NCBI GenBank assembly: GCA_019187225.1
Contig: JABAQQ010000009.1
Coordinates: 52,546-116,545 of the forward strand
Source: Saprospiraceae bacterium
GTDB taxonomy: Bacteria > Bacteroidota > Bacteroidia > Chitinophagales > Saprospiraceae
Length of the DNA: 64,000 nucleotides
Reading direction: 5' to 3'
Shown: positions 382 to 54,562 of the stretch, piece after piece
How the letters are laid out: every line of letters begins with the position of its first letter
How positions within the stretch are numbered: the stretch's first letter is position 1
The notes under the pieces: generated by a model
The model's database searches: none
What the model was told of the DNA's origin: nothing
What the model saw: the letters and a program-made list of their open reading frames with translations, nothing else
Position numbers and translations under genes: made by a program

Positions 382-3300
382 ATGAAAAAGACATTTTTTC
401 CCGCCGGGTTACTTTTCGCTTTCTGCTTTTCGGTTTTTGGACAGGTGGACTCTGCGGCGGTGGTGCGGGAAGTGGACAGCCTCATTCAAGTCTCTCTCTC
501 CCACACAGGTAAGCGAGACTTCGACAAAGCCCTCGAAGTGAATGCCTTTGCTGAAAAACTGGCCTTGGGAAAATTAGGCCGGGAGTCGGCGGCTTATAGT
601 AATACCTGCAATAATCACGGCGTAGTTCTTTATTTAAGAGGAGACAAACCAGAGACAGAAAAATGGTGGCAAGAAACCAAAGACATTCGGGAAAAAGTAT
701 TTGGAACAAAACATCCCATGTATGCCAAAATCCTGCATAACCTGGCGATACTCTATGTAGATATGGGTAGCTTCGAAAAAGCCGAACCGCTCTACCTTGA
801 ATCTAAGGCAATACGGGAAAAGGTATTGGGAAAAGAAAATCTTGACTATGCCTGGAGTCTGAACAATTTAGCAAACCTGTATTGGAAAATAGGCAAATAT
901 GAAAAAGCCGAGCCGCTATATCTTGAATCTAAAGCAATCCGGGAAAAAGTATTGGGAAAAGAACATCCCGACTATGCCGCAAGCCTGAACAACCTTGCGG
1001 TTCTGTATTGGAGCATGGGCAATTATGAAAAATCCGAACCGGTCCATCTTGAATCCATAGGCATCCGGGAAAAAGCATTGGGAAAAGAACATCCTGACTA
1101 TGCCGCAAGCCTGAACAATTTGGCAAGTTTGTATTACGAAATGGGTAATTATGAACAATCCGAACTGCTCCACCTCGAAGCCAAAACCATCTATGAAAAA
1201 GCATTGGGAAAAGAGCATCCCGACTATGCGGCAAGCCTGACCAATCTGGCAATTATATATCAAAATATGGGTAGTTATGAAAAAGTCGAGCCGCTCTTCC
1301 TCGAAACTAAAGCCATCCGCGAAAAAGTACTGGGTAAAGAACATCCCGACTATGCCGCAAGCGTGAGCAACCTTGCGAGTTTGTATTACCAAATGGGCAA
1401 TTATATGAAATTTGAGCCACTCTGCCTCGAATCCAAAGCCATCTGGGAAAAAGCATTGGGTAAGGAGCACCCAGAATATGCTATAAGTATAGATGGCTTG
1501 GCACTTTTGTATAAGGCGATGGGTAATTATGATAAAGCAGAGCCGCTCTTTCTCGAATCCAAAACAATTCGGGAAAAAGCATTAGGTAAGGAACATCCCA
1601 TCTATGCCACAAGCCTGAACAACCTGGCGATTCTGTTTGTGAACATGGGCAAATATGAAAAAGCCGAGCCGCTATATCTTGAAGGTATGACAATCCAGGA
1701 GAAGGTATTGGGAAAAGAACACCCTGACTATGCAGCAAGCCTGAACTACCTGGCGATTTTGAATTGGACTATTGGAGACCTCGATGCAGCCCAATCCTTA
1801 TTACTGAAGTCTGGAGGAATTGAAAAATCGCTGCTCCTCAAAGCAACCCGATACCTTTCCGAACGGGAGCTATCTTCTTATACCCGGAAATTCACCGATG
1901 TCCTGAACCAAAGTTATTCTTTTACGCTATTTCGCCCTGATATATCCAGTACCTCCTACGACAACACCCTATTCTACAAAGGATTTCTCTTAAACGCCGC
2001 CTCACACGCAAGAAATCTGGCACTATCCAACCCGCCAGCAACTGATGACTACATCCGCCTCAAATCCTTCCACCGCCGCCTCGCCTCCGAATATTCCAAG
2101 CCCATCGCCGAACGAAAAAACGTCGCCGAACTCGAAGAAAAAGCCAACACCCTCGAAAAAGAACTCACCCGCAGCGTCGCTGGCTTCGGTGAAGCCCTCC
2201 GCCAGGTCAACTGGCAGGAAGTGCAGGCCGCTCTAAAATCCGGCGAAGCTGCCATCGAATTTATACGTTTTCACTACCGCAATCCCAACCCGACAGACAG
2301 TACGCTCTACGCCGCCCTGCTCCTGAAACCCGGCATGGCAAGCCCCGCCTTCATTGGCCTTTTCGAAGAAAAACAACTCGATGCCTTGCTCGCCCCGCTC
2401 GCCGCACAGGGTAGCAGCGGCCTGAACGAACTCTATGGCGGTCTGACAGGACAATCGCTCTACCGCCTGCTCTGGTCGCCACTGGAACCTCATCTTGCAG
2501 GTGTAAAAACCGTTTATTATTCGCCTGCCGGCCTCCTGCACCGGCTCAACCTGAACGCCATCCCTTCCGGTAAGCTCGACGAAACCATCGGAAAACGCCA
2601 TGCGCTCTCGATGCTCGGCAGTACCCGTTCACTCGCCGGAGGAACGAAGGCGAGGCAACTGATAACTTCTCTCGCCTTCGCCGAGGCTATGGCGGGTAAA
2701 CCTGCTACTGCCACTGTCTTCGGCGGCATCCGATACGATATGGATTCCACCGCTATCAAAGCCGACAACCCGAGCGGCCTTGCCAGTCGCAACCGGGGAC
2801 TTTCCTTCTCCCAAACCGACTCGATGTCGAGGGGCGGCACGTGGGAATACTTGAAACACTCCGACAAAGAAGCCGGCAACATCCAATCGCTGCTACAAAA
2901 GGCTGGTTTTCAGGCAGATGTGCAAAAAGGTTATGCCGCCACTGAAGAAGCATTTAAACAATTGGGCAAAGACAAACCCTCTCCCCGCCTCCTGCACATC
3001 TCCACGCACGGCTTCTTCTTCCCCGACCCACAGGACAATCCGAAATCTGCAATCCCCAATCCGCAATCGGAAGCGCCCGTGTTCAAGATCAGCGACCACC
3101 CCATGATCCGCTCCGGCCTCATACTTGCCGGCGGCAACCACGCCTGGAAAACCGGCCAACCGCTCGGCAACCGCGAGGACGGCATTCTGACGGCCTATGA
3201 GATCAGCCAACTCGACTTGCGCAACACCGATCTGGTAGTGCTTTCTGCCTGCGAGACGGGGCTGGGCCAGATCGAGGGCAACGAGGGCGTGTATGGCCTG

Positions 3301-3556: not shown

Positions 3557-6529
3557 ATGAAAAAGATACTTTCCCCCTTCTTGTTTCTTTTCGCTTTCTG
3601 CTTTTCGGGTTTTGGGCAAGTCGACTCTTCAGCGGTGGTGCGAGAGGTGGACAGCCTCATAAATCTTTCTACCAAGTTGAGTTGGCAACAAAAATATATA
3701 GAGGCATTGCAAGTTGTCGAAGCGGCAGAAAGCAAGGCAAGGCAATTTTTTGGGGAAGACAATTCGCTCTTCGCTGCTTGTTTGAATGCTCATTATGGAA
3801 TATTTTTAAAGATGGAACGCTTCGCTGATGCCGAGTCGCTTGCGATCAGAGCATGCGCCATCTGGAGAAAAACACTTGGGGATCTTCATCCCGACTATGC
3901 CGGTTCGCTTATGAATTTGGCCACCATATACAGATTCACTGATCGTTACGAAAAAGCGGAAAAGATATTTGAGGAAGCTGTAATAGTTTTTGAAAAAGGT
4001 GGAAACCTCAACCATAAAAATTATGCCGGTTGCCTGAACAACATGGCAGGTTTGTATCGAATGTGGGGTAATTTTGAAAAAGCCGAGCCGTTGTATTTGA
4101 AATCGCTGGCAATACGCGCTGCTTTATTGGGCAAAGAGAGCCCGGATTATGCCGGATCGCTGATCAACTTGTCAAACCTGTACCGTAATCTGGGCGACTA
4201 TAATAAAGCAAAACAGTTGCTGATTGAAGCCAAAGACATTTTTGAGGTAAAATTGAACAACCGCACCCATCAGTATTACACGAACGGCCTTGTCAATTTA
4301 GGTCTGACTTATAAAGATATGGGCGACAGCGAAAAAGCCGAAACGCTTTTTCTGGAGGCCAAATCTATCTGGGACAGCTTAAGGGGAGTAAATAGCCCAA
4401 TCACTTTTGGCGTACTATTAAACCTTTCTGCGGTTTACAGGGATCGAGGAGACTATGAAAAGGCGGAAGAATACCTGAACACTTGCAGAACGATTTGTGA
4501 AAACACGTGGGGAAGGGATTCCTGGGAGTTTTCAAGTGTTTTATCGCACCTCGCGTTTGTTTATGTCCTTAGAAAAAATTACGAAAAAGCGGAACAGTTT
4601 TACCATGAGTCAACGGCCATTATAGAAAAAACGCGAGGGAAAAAACACCCGGAATATGCACATAATCTGTTGGCATTAGCTTATTTTTATGAAAAAGAAT
4701 TCCGGTATTCCGAAGCGGACTCGCTTTCGGCAGAGGCATGCGCCTTGCAACAAGCCCATTTAGTCAAATCCGTCGCCTTCCTTTCCGAACGCGAACTTTC
4801 CACTTATATTAAAACTTTTGAACACCGTAATAATGGGTTACTGAGGGCAGTAACAGTCCGCTTTGTCCGCAATGCCGAGAGCGGTAACTTGCCTGCCGTC
4901 TGCTTCGACCAAATCCTGTTTTACAAAGGATTCCTGCTGAACGCGGCAAGGCGGATCAATGCGCTGCCTGAATCCGACACTATAACGGTCGAAAAGTATA
5001 ACCTTTTGAAATACTATCTTCGAAGCCTCGCCAAAGAGTACTCCAGGCCCATCTTGAAACGTGACACCGCAACAGTCACCGTTCTTGAAGAAAAAGTCAT
5101 TGCCCTCGAAAAAGAACTCGCCCGAAGTATAGTAGGCTTCGGCGAAGCACTTCGCCAAGTCAACTGGCAGGAAGTGCAAGCCACCCTGAAACCTGATGAA
5201 GCCGCCATCGAATTTGTCCGTTTCCAGTTTTATTACCCTAACCCCACCGACAGCACGCTCTACGCCGCCCTGCTCCTGAAACCCGGCATGGCAAGCCCCG
5301 CCTTCATTGGCCTTTTCGAAGAAAAACAACTCAACACATTGCTTGCCTCGCTCTCCGAACAAGGCAGCAGCGGCCTCAACGAACTCTACAGCGGACAGGC
5401 AGGTCAATCGGTCTACCAATTGCTCTGGGCGCCGCTGGAACCGCATCTGGCAGGCGTGAAAACTGTTTATTATTCACCTGCCGGCCTCCTGCACCGGCTC
5501 AACCTGAACGCCATCCCTTCCGGTAAGCTCGACGAAACCATCGGAAAACGCCATGCGCTCTCGATGCTCGGCAGTACCCGTTCACTCGCCGGAGGAACGA
5601 AGGCGAGGCAACTGATAACCGCCACTGCTCCCCCCTTCGCCTTTACCCGCCAAAATCAGGATGGCGGCGGGGAGGCTACGGCTGGTAAAACTGCCACTGT
5701 CTTCGGCGGCATCCGATACGATATGGATTCCACCGCTATCAAAGCCGACAACCCGAGCGGCCTTGCCAGTCGCAACCGGGGACTTTCCTTCTCCCAAACC
5801 GACTCCACGCTTCGAGGCGGCGCCTGGGAATACCTCAAATATTCGGAAAAGGAAGCCGACAACATCCAATCCCTCTTGCAAAAAGCAGGTTTTCAGACAG
5901 ATGTGCAAAAAGGTTATGCCGCCACTGAAGAAGCATTTAAACAATTGGGCAAAGACAAACCCTCTCCCCACATCCTGCACATTTCCACGCACGGCTTTTT
6001 CTTTCCTGACCCACAAGATAATCCGCCTTCGGTCGCCATAGGCTTGCCGCAGGTGACACAATCCGCAATCCACAATCCACAATCGGAAGCGCCCGTGTTC
6101 AAGATCAGCGACCACCCGATGATCCGCTCCGGTCTGATCCTCGCCGGAGGCAACCACGCCTGGAAAACCGGCCAACCGCTCGGCAACCGGGAAGACGGCA
6201 TCCTGACGGCCTACGAGATCAGCCAACTCGACCTGCGCAACACCGACCTCGTGGTCCTCTCCGCCTGCGAAACGGGGCTGGGTCAGATCGAGGGCAACGA
6301 AGGCGTCTATGGCCTGCAACGCGCGTTCAAAATCGCCGGAGCGAAAAACCTCGTCATGTCGCTCTGGCAAGTGCCGGACTACCAGACGCAGGAACTGATG
6401 ACGGCTTTTTACCGCAATATGCTGGAAGGGAAAATGCCCGTGCGGCAGGCGCTGCACGCGGCGCAGGAGGAGATGCGGCAGAAAAGGTATGAGCCGTATT
6501 TCTGGGCAGGGTTCGTGCTGGTGGAGTGA
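3557..6529 (+). CDS. Exported TPR-CHAT caspase-like protease, copy B
   Basis: A 990-residue paralogue of the preceding gene, 43 bases behind it and preceded by the same leader. The ATG at 3557 gives a signal peptide (MKKILSPFLFLFAFCFSGFG). TPR units fill about residues 60-420 but are far more diverged than in copy A and one or two units fewer. The CHAT half is nearly identical: long blocks of DNA (about 5480-5625 and 5690-5803) match copy A almost base for base. The dyad is His812 (HISTHG) and Cys904 (LSACETG). Against copy A it has an extra stretch at about 5630-5690 (TAPPFAFTRQNQDGGG) and another at 6024-6056, both low-complexity. Diverged sensor plus conserved protease suggests different triggers for a shared cleavage activity; that is inference. 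Confidence 0.9.
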   Translation: MKKILSPFLFLFAFCFSGFGQVDSSAVVREVDSLINLSTKLSWQQKYIEALQVVEAAESKARQFFGEDNSLFAACLNAHYGIFLKMERFADAESLAIRACAIWRKTLGDLHPDYAGSLMNLATIYRFTDRYEKAEKIFEEAVIVFEKGGNLNHKNYAGCLNNMAGLYRMWGNFEKAEPLYLKSLAIRAALLGKESPDYAGSLINLSNLYRNLGDYNKAKQLLIEAKDIFEVKLNNRTHQYYTNGLVNLGLTYKDMGDSEKAETLFLEAKSIWDSLRGVNSPITFGVLLNLSAVYRDRGDYEKAEEYLNTCRTICENTWGRDSWEFSSVLSHLAFVYVLRKNYEKAEQFYHESTAIIEKTRGKKHPEYAHNLLALAYFYEKEFRYSEADSLSAEACALQQAHLVKSVAFLSERELSTYIKTFEHRNNGLLRAVTVRFVRNAESGNLPAVCFDQILFYKGFLLNAARRINALPESDTITVEKYNLLKYYLRSLAKEYSRPILKRDTATVTVLEEKVIALEKELARSIVGFGEALRQVNWQEVQATLKPDEAAIEFVRFQFYYPNPTDSTLYAALLLKPGMASPAFIGLFEEKQLNTLLASLSEQGSSGLNELYSGQAGQSVYQLLWAPLEPHLAGVKTVYYSPAGLLHRLNLNAIPSGKLDETIGKRHALSMLGSTRSLAGGTKARQLITATAPPFAFTRQNQDGGGEATAGKTATVFGGIRYDMDSTAIKADNPSGLASRNRGLSFSQTDSTLRGGAWEYLKYSEKEADNIQSLLQKAGFQTDVQKGYAATEEAFKQLGKDKPSPHILHISTHGFFFPDPQDNPPSVAIGLPQVTQSAIHNPQSEAPVFKISDHPMIRSGLILAGGNHAWKTGQPLGNREDGILTAYEISQLDLRNTDLVVLSACETGLGQIEGNEGVYGLQRAFKIAGAKNLVMSLWQVPDYQTQELMTAFYRNMLEGKMPVRQALHAAQEEMRQKRYEPYFWAGFVLVE

Positions 6530-44425: not shown

Positions 44426-45190
44426 ATGCCTCTCCTCCTTACCCGGCATCCTTTTCCCGACACGACGTTCGGCCTGTGGCAAATCGCCGAGGAGGAGGTT
44501 TTTTTCCGCGATGAGTTGCCCCTCTCGGTAGAAGAGGAAGCCGAAATGGCGCGTCTGAAAAACGACCTGCGCCGCCATGAATGGCTCGCCGGACGCTGGC
44601 TCCTGCACAAACTCACCGGCGCCCCTCAGCGCCTGCCGCTCGCCAAAGACGCCTTTTCCAAACCTTTTTTCCCTGAAAACCAACACCTTGCCTGTTCGCT
44701 CAGCCATTCGCATGGCATCGTCGGAGCATTGATTTCGGATTGGGGATTGCGGATTGCGGATTACCCGCGCGTTCAATCCGAAATCCGCAATCCCCAATCC
44801 GAAATCAGGAATTCCGAAATCGGCTGCGACGTCCAGGTACTGGTAGATAAAATGCCCCGGCTGGCCTCGAAATTCCTGAACGTGGAAGAAGAAAAATTCG
44901 TGGCGCAGCACCCTGCCGCCGCCACCCAATTCGACCTGTTCCACGTTTTCTGGACAGCCAAAGAAAGCCTGTACAAAGCGTATGGATTAAGGGAGCTCGA
45001 TTTCAGGGCACACATGCGCCTCGAACCCTTCGAATGGAAGGACAACCGCGGCGCGGCAAGGGGTTGGGTGGAGAAAAACGACTTCCGGCAGGCTTACCGG
45101 CTGCAATTTGAAAAAATCACCTTGCCTGACGAGGGCGAACTGGTATGGACAGTCTGTATGCCGGAGGAGCGGGTCATTAAGGGTCATTAA
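44426..45190 (+). CDS. 4'-phosphopantetheinyl transferase (Sfp type) with in-frame palindromic insertion
   Basis: 254 residues. It attaches phosphopantetheine from CoA to a carrier protein. LKNDLRRHEWLAGRWLL and SLSHSHGIVGA come first, then the metal-binding Asp in IGCDVQ, and FWTAKESLYKAYG, the WxxKEs motif of the family, with Glu and Lys in place. Between SHSHGIVGA and IGCDVQ is an extra run of about 30 residues (residues about 103-132), encoded by the stuttering palindrome 44731-44806 plus flank; family members normally have only a short loop here. The last residues (RVIKGH) and the stop are encoded by the repeat at 45171. Activity is plausible since the insertion is in a surface loop. Confidence 0.88.
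   Translation: MPLLLTRHPFPDTTFGLWQIAEEEVFFRDELPLSVEEEAEMARLKNDLRRHEWLAGRWLLHKLTGAPQRLPLAKDAFSKPFFPENQHLACSLSHSHGIVGALISDWGLRIADYPRVQSEIRNPQSEIRNSEIGCDVQVLVDKMPRLASKFLNVEEEKFVAQHPAAATQFDLFHVFWTAKESLYKAYGLRELDFRAHMRLEPFEWKDNRGAARGWVEKNDFRQAYRLQFEKITLPDEGELVWTVCMPEERVIKGH
44731..44806. repeat. Perfect 25-base stuttering palindrome inside the phosphopantetheinyl transferase gene
   Basis: Left arm 44731-44755 begins GATTTCGGATTGGGG and ends TTGCGGATT; right arm 44782-44806 is its exact reverse complement, separated by 26 bases. Each arm is made of GGATT words. The word AATCCGCAATCC also appears inside both CHAT genes (about 3045-3072 and 6057-6085). The reading frame stays open through it. Confidence 0.9.
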
Positions 45191-45239
45191 AGTCATTTCT
45201 AATACCCCCAATGCACTCTCTAATGACCCCTAATGACCC
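45171..45239. repeat. GGGTCATTA palindrome that supplies the stops of two convergent genes
   Basis: The left arm is GGGTCATTA-A-GGGTCATTA (45171-45189); the right arm TAATGACCCC-TAATGACCC (45221-45239) is complementary at 18 of 19 positions. The left arm encodes RVIKGH and stop for the phosphopantetheinyl transferase; the right arm, on the other strand, encodes RVIRGH and stop for the DinB-like gene. The same words occur at 23931-23980. Confidence 0.85.
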
Positions 45240-45857: not shown

Positions 45858-47312
45858 ATGCTACCGCCTCCCTTTGAACGTCAGATGCAGGAACTCCTTG
45901 GCCGGGAGGAATACGCAGCCTTTCTTGTTGCCTTGCAGGAAACTCCGCCAGTCAGCATCCGGTTGAATCCTTTCAAGACGGTAGACGGTGGACGGTGGAC
46001 GGTACACGGTGGAGGGGAGATTGCAGATGAAAAAATATCCGATGAATCTTCTGTCATCCACCCTCCGCCGTCCACCGTCCACCGTCTACCGTCCACCGTC
46101 CCCTGGCATCCTCTCGGTTTTTACCTGCCGGAGCGCCCCGTCTTTACCCTCGACCCGGCCTTCCACGCCGGAGCATATTACGTGCAGGAGGCCTCTTCGA
46201 TGTTTCTTTACGAAGCATTGCGGCAATCGGTTGATTTTTCCCGACCGTTGAACGCGCTGGATCTGTGCGCTGCGCCGGGAGGGAAAAGCACACTGGTAGC
46301 GGACATGCTTCAACCTGATAGTTTGCTTGTAGCCAACGAAGTCATCCGTTCACGCGTGGGTATCCTGAGAGAAAATCTGGAAAAATGGGGCGTTCCCAAT
46401 ATCGCCGTCACCAGTACCGAAGCGGAGGAACTCGCAGCGCTGGAAGATTTTTTCGACGTTGTCGTCACCGATGCGCCGTGCAGCGGGGAGGGATTGTTTC
46501 GCAAAGACCCCGGCGCGATGCGCGAATGGTCGCCCGCCAACGTGGAGTTGTGCAGCGGACGGCAGCGGCGCATTCTGGCCACGGCTGTAAAATCGCTGGC
46601 GCCGGGAGGGGTACTGGCGTACAGCACCTGTACTTTCAACCGCGCGGAAAATGAAGAGAATGTTGCCTGGCTGACGCAAAATTTTAATCTCGAACCTGTT
46701 CGACTCCATATCCCTTCCGAATGGGGCATCATGGAAACGGATGGTGGCTACCGTTTTTTTCCACACAAGGTGCGGGGCGAAGGTTTTTTTCTCGCCGTCT
46801 TCCGGAAAAAAGAAGGCGACAGAAAAAAAATCGCATCGGCATCCGCATTTAAAAGTATAAAACCAATCGCCAAAAATCTCGCACCCGAAGCCGCCCGCTG
46901 GCTGCGCCCCGATCTGGAAGTTCGTTTCTTTCAAACGCCCACCGGCGAAGTGCTCGCTTTGCCCGCAACACTCGAAACGGATTATCTGATCCTGGATAAA
47001 TATTTGAAAGCCAAATGGTTCGGAACGATGGCCGGAACTTTCAAAGGCAGCGATTTTATTCCTTCGCACGCCCTGGCGTTGAGCCGCCTGATCTCTCCTA
47101 CCCTGCCGGCACTCGACCTGGAGCGCGATCAGGCGCTTCGATTTTTGAAAAAAGAAACGTTCGACGTGCCGCCGGACGCGCCCCGCGGCTGGACGCTGGC
47201 CCGGTACGCCGGTTTGAACCTCGGCTGGATAAAAATCCTGCCGGGTCGAATGAACAACTATTTCCCCGCAGAACGGCGGATACGCATGGACATTAAAAGC
47301 GAAGAGATATAA
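45858..47312 (+). CDS. RsmF/NOP2-type rRNA cytosine-C5 methyltransferase with in-frame insertion
   Basis: 484 residues from the ATG at 45858 (an internal ATG 8 codons on is also possible). It has the family order: N-terminal domain (FERQMQELLGREEYAAFLVA, SIRLNPFKT), the SAM-binding block LDLCAAPGGKSTLVADML, the catalytic DAPCSGEGLFRKDP with the first Cys, and STCTFNRAENEENVAWL with the second. Residues from about 370 on resemble the RsmF C-terminal PUA-like part. Between NPFKT and VPWHPLGFYLPERP, normally a short loop, residues about 41-79 are encoded by a stuttering palindrome (45977-46093). It methylates cytosine in rRNA using two Cys residues, both kept here. Confidence 0.9.
   Translation: MLPPPFERQMQELLGREEYAAFLVALQETPPVSIRLNPFKTVDGGRWTVHGGGEIADEKISDESSVIHPPPSTVHRLPSTVPWHPLGFYLPERPVFTLDPAFHAGAYYVQEASSMFLYEALRQSVDFSRPLNALDLCAAPGGKSTLVADMLQPDSLLVANEVIRSRVGILRENLEKWGVPNIAVTSTEAEELAALEDFFDVVVTDAPCSGEGLFRKDPGAMREWSPANVELCSGRQRRILATAVKSLAPGGVLAYSTCTFNRAENEENVAWLTQNFNLEPVRLHIPSEWGIMETDGGYRFFPHKVRGEGFFLAVFRKKEGDRKKIASASAFKSIKPIAKNLAPEAARWLRPDLEVRFFQTPTGEVLALPATLETDYLILDKYLKAKWFGTMAGTFKGSDFIPSHALALSRLISPTLPALDLERDQALRFLKKETFDVPPDAPRGWTLARYAGLNLGWIKILPGRMNNYFPAERRIRMDIKSEEI
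45977..46093. repeat. Perfect 26-base stuttering palindrome inside the rRNA methyltransferase gene
   Basis: The left arm 45977-46002 consists of GACGGTAGACGGTGGACGG-type words; the right arm 46068-46093 is its exact reverse complement. The spacer of 65 bases has further partial pairing (GTGGAGGG with CCACCCTCC). Words are 7 bases long (ACGGTGG). The frame is open throughout. Confidence 0.9.
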
Positions 47313-54400: not shown

Positions 54401-54562
54401 AGTCCAACGTCCAATAGTCCAACGTCCAATAGTCCAACGTCCAATAGTCCAACGTCCAATAGTCCAACATCCAATAGTCCAACGTCCAATAGTCCAACAT
54501 CCAATAGTCCAACGTCCAATAGTCCAACATCCAATAGTCCAACGTCCAATAGTCCAACGTCC
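54401..54562. repeat. 15-base tandem array, AGTCCAACGTCCAAT
   Basis: Ten complete 15-base units plus 12 bases of an eleventh, perfectly in register. The only variation is CGT or CAT at one position; units 4-10 alternate strictly (CGT, CAT), giving a 30-base higher-order unit. The array ends 8 bases before the SDR start and is the whole leader of that gene. The same AGTCCAACGTCC word occurs in the palindrome at 22132-22206. Confidence 0.95.

What the first reader, a model, noticed from the sequence alone, without database searches (positions are those of the whole stretch)
44731..44806. Perfect 25-base palindrome made of GGATT words, in frame inside a phosphopantetheinyl transferase
Both arms are exact reverse complements and are themselves built from direct repeats. 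The element adds about 30 residues between SHSHGIVGA and IGCDVQ, where the family normally has a short loop. The frame is kept and all active-site residues remain, so the host protein seems to tolerate it. Perfect arms mean recent arrival or ongoing correction. It is one of several elements of the same design with different words in this window, which suggests a general process rather than one mobile family.
Basis: partly seen in the sequence, partly recalled or inferred. Interest (0 to 1): 0.8.

Follow-up and report, generated by a model that had tools for sequence, protein, structure and literature searches.

The report
Palindrome of seven-letter DNA words
A near-perfect DNA hairpin built from repeated seven-base words sits in frame inside an enzyme gene; it is one of many such hairpins and runs in this and some other bacteria, and at the same gene junctions related species can carry hairpins of the same design spelled with different words, which points to a general copying process rather than to one mobile sequence.

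Summary
The palindrome is real: 26-base exact arms (33-base arms, 32 of 33 paired, 12-base loop) at 44730-44807, built of the heptamer GATTNNG, DNA fold z -9.9. It lies in frame between the two Pfam domains of the phosphopantetheinyl transferase. Of 22 same-genus orthologues 19 have a shorter loop; the two closest carry another heptamer run (CAACAAC type) in that loop. The genome holds 157 overlapping GGATTGCGGATTGC matches against 0 reversed. In the sample, runs lie in frame in conserved enzymes (RibE, GpmI, TsaB, PheT and others) or near gene ends, G-rich strand leaving the gene. In Fibrella rubiginis the arms of 28 pairs copy each other's word order (0 of 20000 permutations) though the order differs from site to site. 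At three gene junctions, sister species mostly carry such hairpins, often in different words. Best reading: small hairpins inserted where selection allows, 7-base slippage, and arm-to-arm copying by template switching. Dispersed heptamers, some inverted, are known from Xanthomonas; word-matched arms and word replacement at a site were not seen in the papers searched.

The parts
44730..44762 (+). left arm, GATTNNG words (outer 26 nt exact)
44763..44774 (.). 12-base loop, not shared with the other G000 pairs seen
   Evidence: by eye
44775..44807 (-). right arm, inverted copy of the left arm, 32 of 33
44808..44824 (-). degenerate continuation of the right run (AATTCCGAAATC)
   Evidence: sequence; run 44775-44821
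44426..45190 (+). host gene, 4'-phosphopantetheinyl transferase superfamily, frame open through the insert
45171..45239 (.). second paired element (10-base GGGTCATTAA words) at the convergent junction with the next gene; G007 and G009 lack about 60 nt here
45977..46100 (.). third paired element (GACGGTG/TCCACCG heptamers), in frame in a methyltransferase-like gene (name recalled from sequence); absent in G007 and G009
3036..3072 (-). unpaired GATT-type run in frame in a gene that looks CHAT-like (recalled)
6057..6084 (-). unpaired GATT-type run in the same loop of a paralogous gene

Best explanation
It is a heptamer-word hairpin: two inverted runs of GATTNNG around a short loop, lodged in a tolerant interdomain loop of the enzyme. 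It is one of a dispersed class of elements with one design and many spellings. Most likely: (1) short hairpin or run DNA arrives in small gaps between genes and in surface loops, and selection removes the rest; (2) runs gain and lose units in 7-base steps by slippage, which shuffles the words; (3) when the nascent strand folds back during replication, one arm is copied from the other (template switching at quasi-palindromes), so the arms change in step while each site drifts to its own word order. Shown: structure, abundance, in-frame presence in conserved enzymes, empty sites in relatives, word-matched arms in Fibrella, different words at the same junction in sister species. Inferred: the arrival step, slippage, template switching, and selection as the filter. 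No dedicated enzyme was identified.
For: 157 overlapping matches of the 14-mer against 0 reversed. Empty or different orthologous sites in G007/G009. Of 15 Fibrella inverted repeats with both flanks found in the G455 sample, 5 sites there are 0-22 nt between the aligned flanks. Arm word order in G429: 28 of 28 pairs head-to-head, score 128.1 against 24.3 permuted, 0 of 20000; 19 of 28 share a three-word string against 2.6% of foreign arms; 28 distinct word strings in 29 heptamer elements; arms fully identical in 15 of 30. G000: 12 of 12 head-to-head, 80 of 20000. Shared oddities in both arms, e.g. GATATCG in G456 and GGGGATACATG in L201. Inverted pair in the atpD-atpC gap in 5 of 5 Fibrella species, upstream of ybeY in 5 of 5, upstream of recR in 4 of 5 (G454 none, G453 weak), with differing words. 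Hairpin presence persists at orthologous gaps: 5 of 10 against 3 of 46, Fisher p 0.003. In-frame runs in RibE, GpmI, TsaB and PheT.
Against: Own genome: most sites are unpaired runs, and a first scoring of arm match gave only p 0.047. In 11 pairs from other phyla (found through a peptide of one arm) arms do not match beyond chance (15976 of 20000). Template switching was not observed, only inferred. The polarity of runs (G-rich strand leaving the gene, median 3 nt from its end) is not predicted by it, nor is the sharing of GATTNNG words across phyla. In Fibrella an inner stem GCTGACGC or GCTTACGC, in 18 of 30 arms, suggests common descent of part of the element. G454 pairs are short and imperfect.
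Confidence: 0.5

Rival explanations
1. One mobile palindromic family (MITE, REP or Rickettsia-type palindromic element) moved by a transposase; different spellings are diverged subfamilies, and the same gaps are hit repeatedly because few gaps are tolerated.
For: Inner stem GCTGACGC or GCTTACGC in 18 of 30 Fibrella arms; sites of 0-22 nt in a sister species; Y1 transposases in G000 and G429.
Against: The RAYT loci examined (2 of 3 in G000, 2 of 3 in G429, about 3.3 kb each) hold no GATT runs but other inverted repeats; G007 and G009 have Y1 genes and no such 14-mer, G446 has runs and no Y1 match. 28 of 29 word strings distinct. Target duplications: none seen by eye in the flanks, not counted.
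Confidence: 0.25
2. Plain slippage microsatellites: independent heptamer runs arise on each side of a short stretch, and pairs look palindromic only because runs point away from genes.
For: Strong polarity for GATT (26 of 33 against 2 of 32 within 15 nt) and for other heptamers (18 of 41 against 3 of 42); unpaired majority in G000; no arm match in the 11 pairs from other phyla.
Against: Word order matched between arms in G429 (0 of 20000) and in G000 (80 of 20000); L027 arms identical over 32 nt with four words.
Confidence: 0.15
3. A telomerase-like or other reverse transcriptase writes the words from an RNA template (as DRT10 writes tandem repeats).
For: Constant word length with changing spelling; the same strand leaving the gene; DRT10 (UG17) makes templated tandem repeats with varied units (PMC12632851, passages); UG17 is the best named DRT model for one of the three G000 reverse transcriptases (8e-36) and below others for a second (1.5e-27).
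Against: Both of those enzymes lie beside an Avd gene over its curated cut-off, so they are diversity-generating retroelements; the third is retron-like. No template was sought.
Confidence: 0.05
4. A functional element kept for its hairpin (transcript end or stability control between genes).
For: Position next to gene ends, hairpin kept while sequence changes.
Against: In-frame copies inside enzymes, and empty orthologous gaps; no function found for similar repeats by their describers (PMC4692102, Discussion read).
Confidence: 0.05

Closest known systems
GGGAATC / GGGGA(C/T)T heptamer repeats of Xanthomonas and Nostoc (PMC4692102; passages and Discussion)
   Same: Tandem heptamers dispersed over the genome; inverted pairs (70 and 75 in two Xanthomonas genomes); G-rich strand upstream on the non-coding and downstream on the coding strand, close to the gene. 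GATTGGG is the same cyclic word as GGGGATT.
   Different: Here mosaic words, many word families in one genome, in-frame copies in conserved enzymes, arms matched in word order (clear in Fibrella), different words at the same site in sister species; the main words lack three Gs in a row.
Rickettsia palindromic elements (recalled; PMC3733652 passages equate RPE-4 and RPE-6 with CGTC repeats)
   Same: Palindromes in frame in protein genes
   Different: No common element sequence among the G000 pairs; runs of 7-base words
GTAG/CGTC REPs and RAYTs (PMC3733652, passages)
   Same: Small hairpins, several families per genome; the Fibrella inner stem often contains GACGC
   Different: Arms here are heptamer runs with site-specific order; RAYT loci seen carry other repeats
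Template-switch hairpin correction (PMC8794818, PMC8604942: abstract openings in a listing; PMC6649704: abstract and passages)
   Same: Inverted arms kept in step, also inside coding genes
   Different: Here arms are tandem words, and spelling differs wholesale between species at a site
TAACTGA direct repeats (PMC4679880, abstract and Bacteroidetes section)
   Same: Heptamers near gene starts, scattered across phyla including Bacteroidetes
   Different: Direct, with one inverted case reported in the main genome

Membership tests
Xanthomonas/Nostoc-type dispersed heptamer repeats | tandem 7-base units dispersed through the genome | tested here: met
Xanthomonas/Nostoc-type dispersed heptamer repeats | strand and position bias relative to genes | tested here: met
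Xanthomonas/Nostoc-type dispersed heptamer repeats | G-quadruplex capacity (four tracts of three or more G) | tested here: not met
   the window arm has one such tract (read from sequence); runs of GATTGGG elsewhere could meet it
Rickettsia palindromic elements | one conserved element sequence in many genes | tested here: not met
   word orders differ among 12 pairs in G000; loops compared by eye
Rickettsia palindromic elements | palindrome in frame in a gene | tested here: met
REP/RAYT | repeats flank the Y1 transposase gene | tested here: not met
   2 of 3 loci each in G000 and G429
MITE | target-site duplication | tested here: inconclusive
   none seen by eye; no count made
DRT10 product | DRT10 enzyme with ncRNA template | tested here: not met
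   three RTs in G000: two with Avd (diversity-generating retroelements), one retron-like; no ncRNA search
Template-switch corrected inverted repeat | arms share changes at a site | tested here: met
   G429 0 of 20000, G000 80 of 20000; shared oddities
Template-switch corrected inverted repeat | correction events seen between strains | not testable with these tools
   one genome per species

The most novel reading that the evidence does not exclude
A dedicated process writes and rewrites heptamer-word hairpins at fixed sites: the place and the hairpin are inherited, the spelling is replaced in both arms at once, so that close species hold different words at the same junction. Words act as interchangeable letters of a self-copying hairpin, a form of heredity of structure without sequence.
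Probability: 0.2. Interest if true: 0.9.

Novelty: new variant of a known kind. Interest (0 to 1): 0.73.

Why it matters
It gives a natural, countable record of arm-to-arm copying: each site carries its own word string, so copying, slippage and replacement can be told apart by reading genomes. It also shows conserved enzymes carrying inserts encoded by these words, and gives a test case for whether a DNA structure can be inherited while its sequence is replaced.

Tried and rejected
Telomerase-like reverse transcriptase: of three RTs in G000 two sit beside Avd genes (diversity-generating retroelements) and one is retron-like. REP transposase: the RAYT loci seen carry other repeats. Loss of the hairpin nuclease SbcCD: SbcD matches are below cut-off alike in G000, G007, G009, G013 and G022, over cut-off in G429 and G455, only weak in G453; no pattern. 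Six-frame stop-free words as a rule: of the ten commonest word types in G429 arms, 216 of 221 words are stop-free, but several other word families (GATTTAC, GTCTAAA, AGTGATG) are not, and half of all 7-mers are. Species-wide dialect of words: G429 also holds GATTTAC, AATGTAC and GTCTAAA hairpins, so dropped. Alignment D gave no usable empty site. In print: the words and their peptides were searched as letters (one unrelated fish paper); repeat and palindrome searches were made; no paper on word-matched heptamer arms was seen in those listings, and the library lacks most subscription journals.

Full report
OBSERVATION. The element is present as described, slightly longer. Exact arms are 26 nt (44730-44755, 44782-44807); allowing one mismatch they are 33 nt with a 12-nt loop. 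Both arms are runs of the heptamer GATTNNG. In the window two inverted pairs with arms of 16 nt or more were found and none in one shuffle; the DNA fold has z -9.9, the RNA fold z -9.2.

HOST GENE. The 254-residue open frame matches 4PPT_N at 47-104 and ACPS at 132-243; the insert fills the space between the domains. In one search, 22 of 24 same-genus relatives gave an orthologue. In the alignment, 19 of these 22 have a shorter loop (up to about 15 residues against 30), one (L041) has a scaffold gap of N there, and two (G007, G009, the closest) carry a run of CAACAAC/CAGCAAC heptamers in the same loop; in G007 the run is interrupted by another inverted-looking sequence.

GENOME. GGATTGCGGATTGC gives 157 matches (overlapping ones counted) in the 7.18-Mb genome, the reversed control 0; of the 59 other genomes, 4 have any. 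In 400 kb of contig C1, period 7 is the commonest of periods 4-24 for long exact runs (30 runs; one shuffle 0); the window has none at that threshold. Other heptamers and other periods also form inverted pairs, among 45 pairs in C1 of which many are not periodic. The GATT sample below was chosen by the 14-mer plus C1 and the window, so its counts are not genome-wide rates.

WHERE RUNS LIE. Gene calls are from my own codon-usage script. Of 55 unpaired GATT runs, 22 lie in genes, all 22 with the C-rich strand coding (peptide RNPQSAI type). Of the 33 outside, the 5' end of the G-rich strand is within 15 nt of a gene end in 26 (median 3 nt; 18 stops, 8 starts); of 32 with a gene on the other side, 2 (median 154 nt) (Fisher p 1e-9). 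Heptamers outside the GATT family show the same bias (18 of 41 against 3 of 42), with in-gene runs 7 C-coding and 3 G-coding; other periods are few: period 8, 4 of 16 against 0 of 17; period 10, 2 of 13 against 0 of 13; period 14, 10 of 17 against 2 of 18. Counting arms of pairs too, in-gene GATT-like runs are 23 C-coding and 5 G-coding. Of 12 paired elements, 4 were called inside genes and 6 of the other 8 touch genes within 18 nt on both sides. Of 10 hosts of in-gene runs sent to NCBIfam, 6 pass a curated cut-off: riboflavin synthase, phosphoglycerate mutase, TsaB, PheT, dephospho-CoA kinase and HemE; the delta-prime-like protein matched holB below its cut-off (its Pfam domain passes), the other three matched more loosely. 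In the kinase and HemE the run lies within the first 20 residues, so a wrong start call could place it outside the protein.

EMPTY SITES NEAR THE WINDOW ELEMENT. At the convergent end of the same gene (45171-45239) a palindrome of 10-base words is absent in G007 and G009, and the two flanking proteins here end in nearly the same residues (RVIKGH, RVIRGH) because both arms are translated. The TCCACCG pair (45977-46100) is absent in both relatives, the 15-base run (54401-54562) in G007, the only one compared.

ARMS. The pairs found are head to head (GATT runs facing): 12 of 12 in G000, 28 of 28 in G429, 11 of 11 in loci of other phyla (the last set was found through a peptide of one arm). Arms were defined by word spacing, not by complementarity. 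Word-order match against permuted partners: G429 128.1 against 24.3, 0 of 20000; G000 22.5 against 7.8, 80 of 20000; other phyla 4.6 against 5.2, 15976 of 20000. An earlier scoring for G000 gave p 0.047. In G429, 30 inverted pairs were listed, 29 of heptamer words and one of other words (L201, second); the 29 show 28 word strings. Arms are fully identical in 15 of 30, up to 76 nt, and an inner stem GCTGACGC or GCTTACGC is in 18 of 30 arms. All 30 were called between genes, 19 within 20 nt of both. These came from the roughly 100 listed of 121 matches.

SAME SITE, OTHER WORDS. Between atpD and atpC five of five Fibrella species have an inverted pair at the same place: GATTNNG words in G429 and G456, GATTTAC in G455, AATGTAC in G453, and a short imperfect AGTTAAG type in G454. 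Upstream of ybeY five of five have one, each spelled differently (G456 not clearly heptameric, G454 short and imperfect). Upstream of recR four of five (G453 weak, 13-nt arm; none detected in G454); G429 and G455 differ in words although RecR is 99% identical. The gene names atpD, atpC, ybeY and recR are recalled from the protein sequences. In a comparison of 400-kb samples, 15 G429 inverted repeats had both flanks in the G455 sample; in 5 of these 15 the G455 gap was 0-22 nt between aligned flanks. Gaps with an inverted repeat in G429 hold one in G455 in 5 of 10 cases, gaps without in 3 of 46; only 10 of 58 and 46 of 170 gaps could be compared (p 0.003). These include terminator-like hairpins.

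SPREAD. In 395 genomes of the phylum (own included) 27 have four GATTNNG words in a row; high counts of overlapping matches are scattered (G000 340, G429 121, G194 97, G313 25, G348 25). Control counts are not zero in several genomes, so low counts mean little. The peptide search hit 16 loci, among them Gemmatimonadetes, Chloroflexi, Planctomycetota, a Desulfurivibrio and an alphaproteobacterium.

MECHANISM. Arms that match in a site-specific order need copying from arm to arm or a joint origin. Template switching at inverted repeats is the established process that does this (PMC8794818 and PMC8604942 seen as abstract openings in a listing; PMC6649704 abstract and passages). Empty gaps show that hairpins arrive or are lost. 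Whether the word change at a fixed site is replacement in place or a second arrival is open. The polarity of unpaired runs is unexplained; it was reported for other heptamers in Xanthomonas and Nostoc (PMC4692102 passages and Discussion).

VERDICT. A real, well supported member of a dispersed class, with features not found in the papers seen: new variant of a known kind.

Noticed in passing
window 3036-3072 and 6057-6084; G000:C1:119821: Paralogous proteins that look CHAT-like (recalled) carry different word runs in the same loop (before EAPVFKISDHP or EPAFKVSDHP).
   Followed up: partly
window 54401-54562: Run of a 15-base unit (AGTCCAACGTCCAAT), 10.8 copies, between two genes; absent in G007.
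   Followed up: partly
window 45171-45239: Convergent genes end in nearly the same residues (RVIKGH and RVIRGH) because both arms of a palindrome are translated.
   Followed up: yes
G007 orthologue L032: A GC-rich inverted-looking sequence interrupts the CAACAAC run in the transferase loop, as if one small element landed in another.
   Followed up: no
L201 3410-3556 and several loci: Other near-perfect inverted repeats with longer words (ACAGGATTT, CGCAGATTT) in Fibrella and in the Saprospiraceae samples.
   Followed up: no
L160 and L170 (G000:C7 and C21): Two reverse transcriptase genes each beside an Avd gene: two diversity-generating retroelements in this genome.
   Followed up: partly
G194, G313, G348, G446: Distant genomes of the same phylum with many GATTNNG runs; not examined further.
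   Followed up: no
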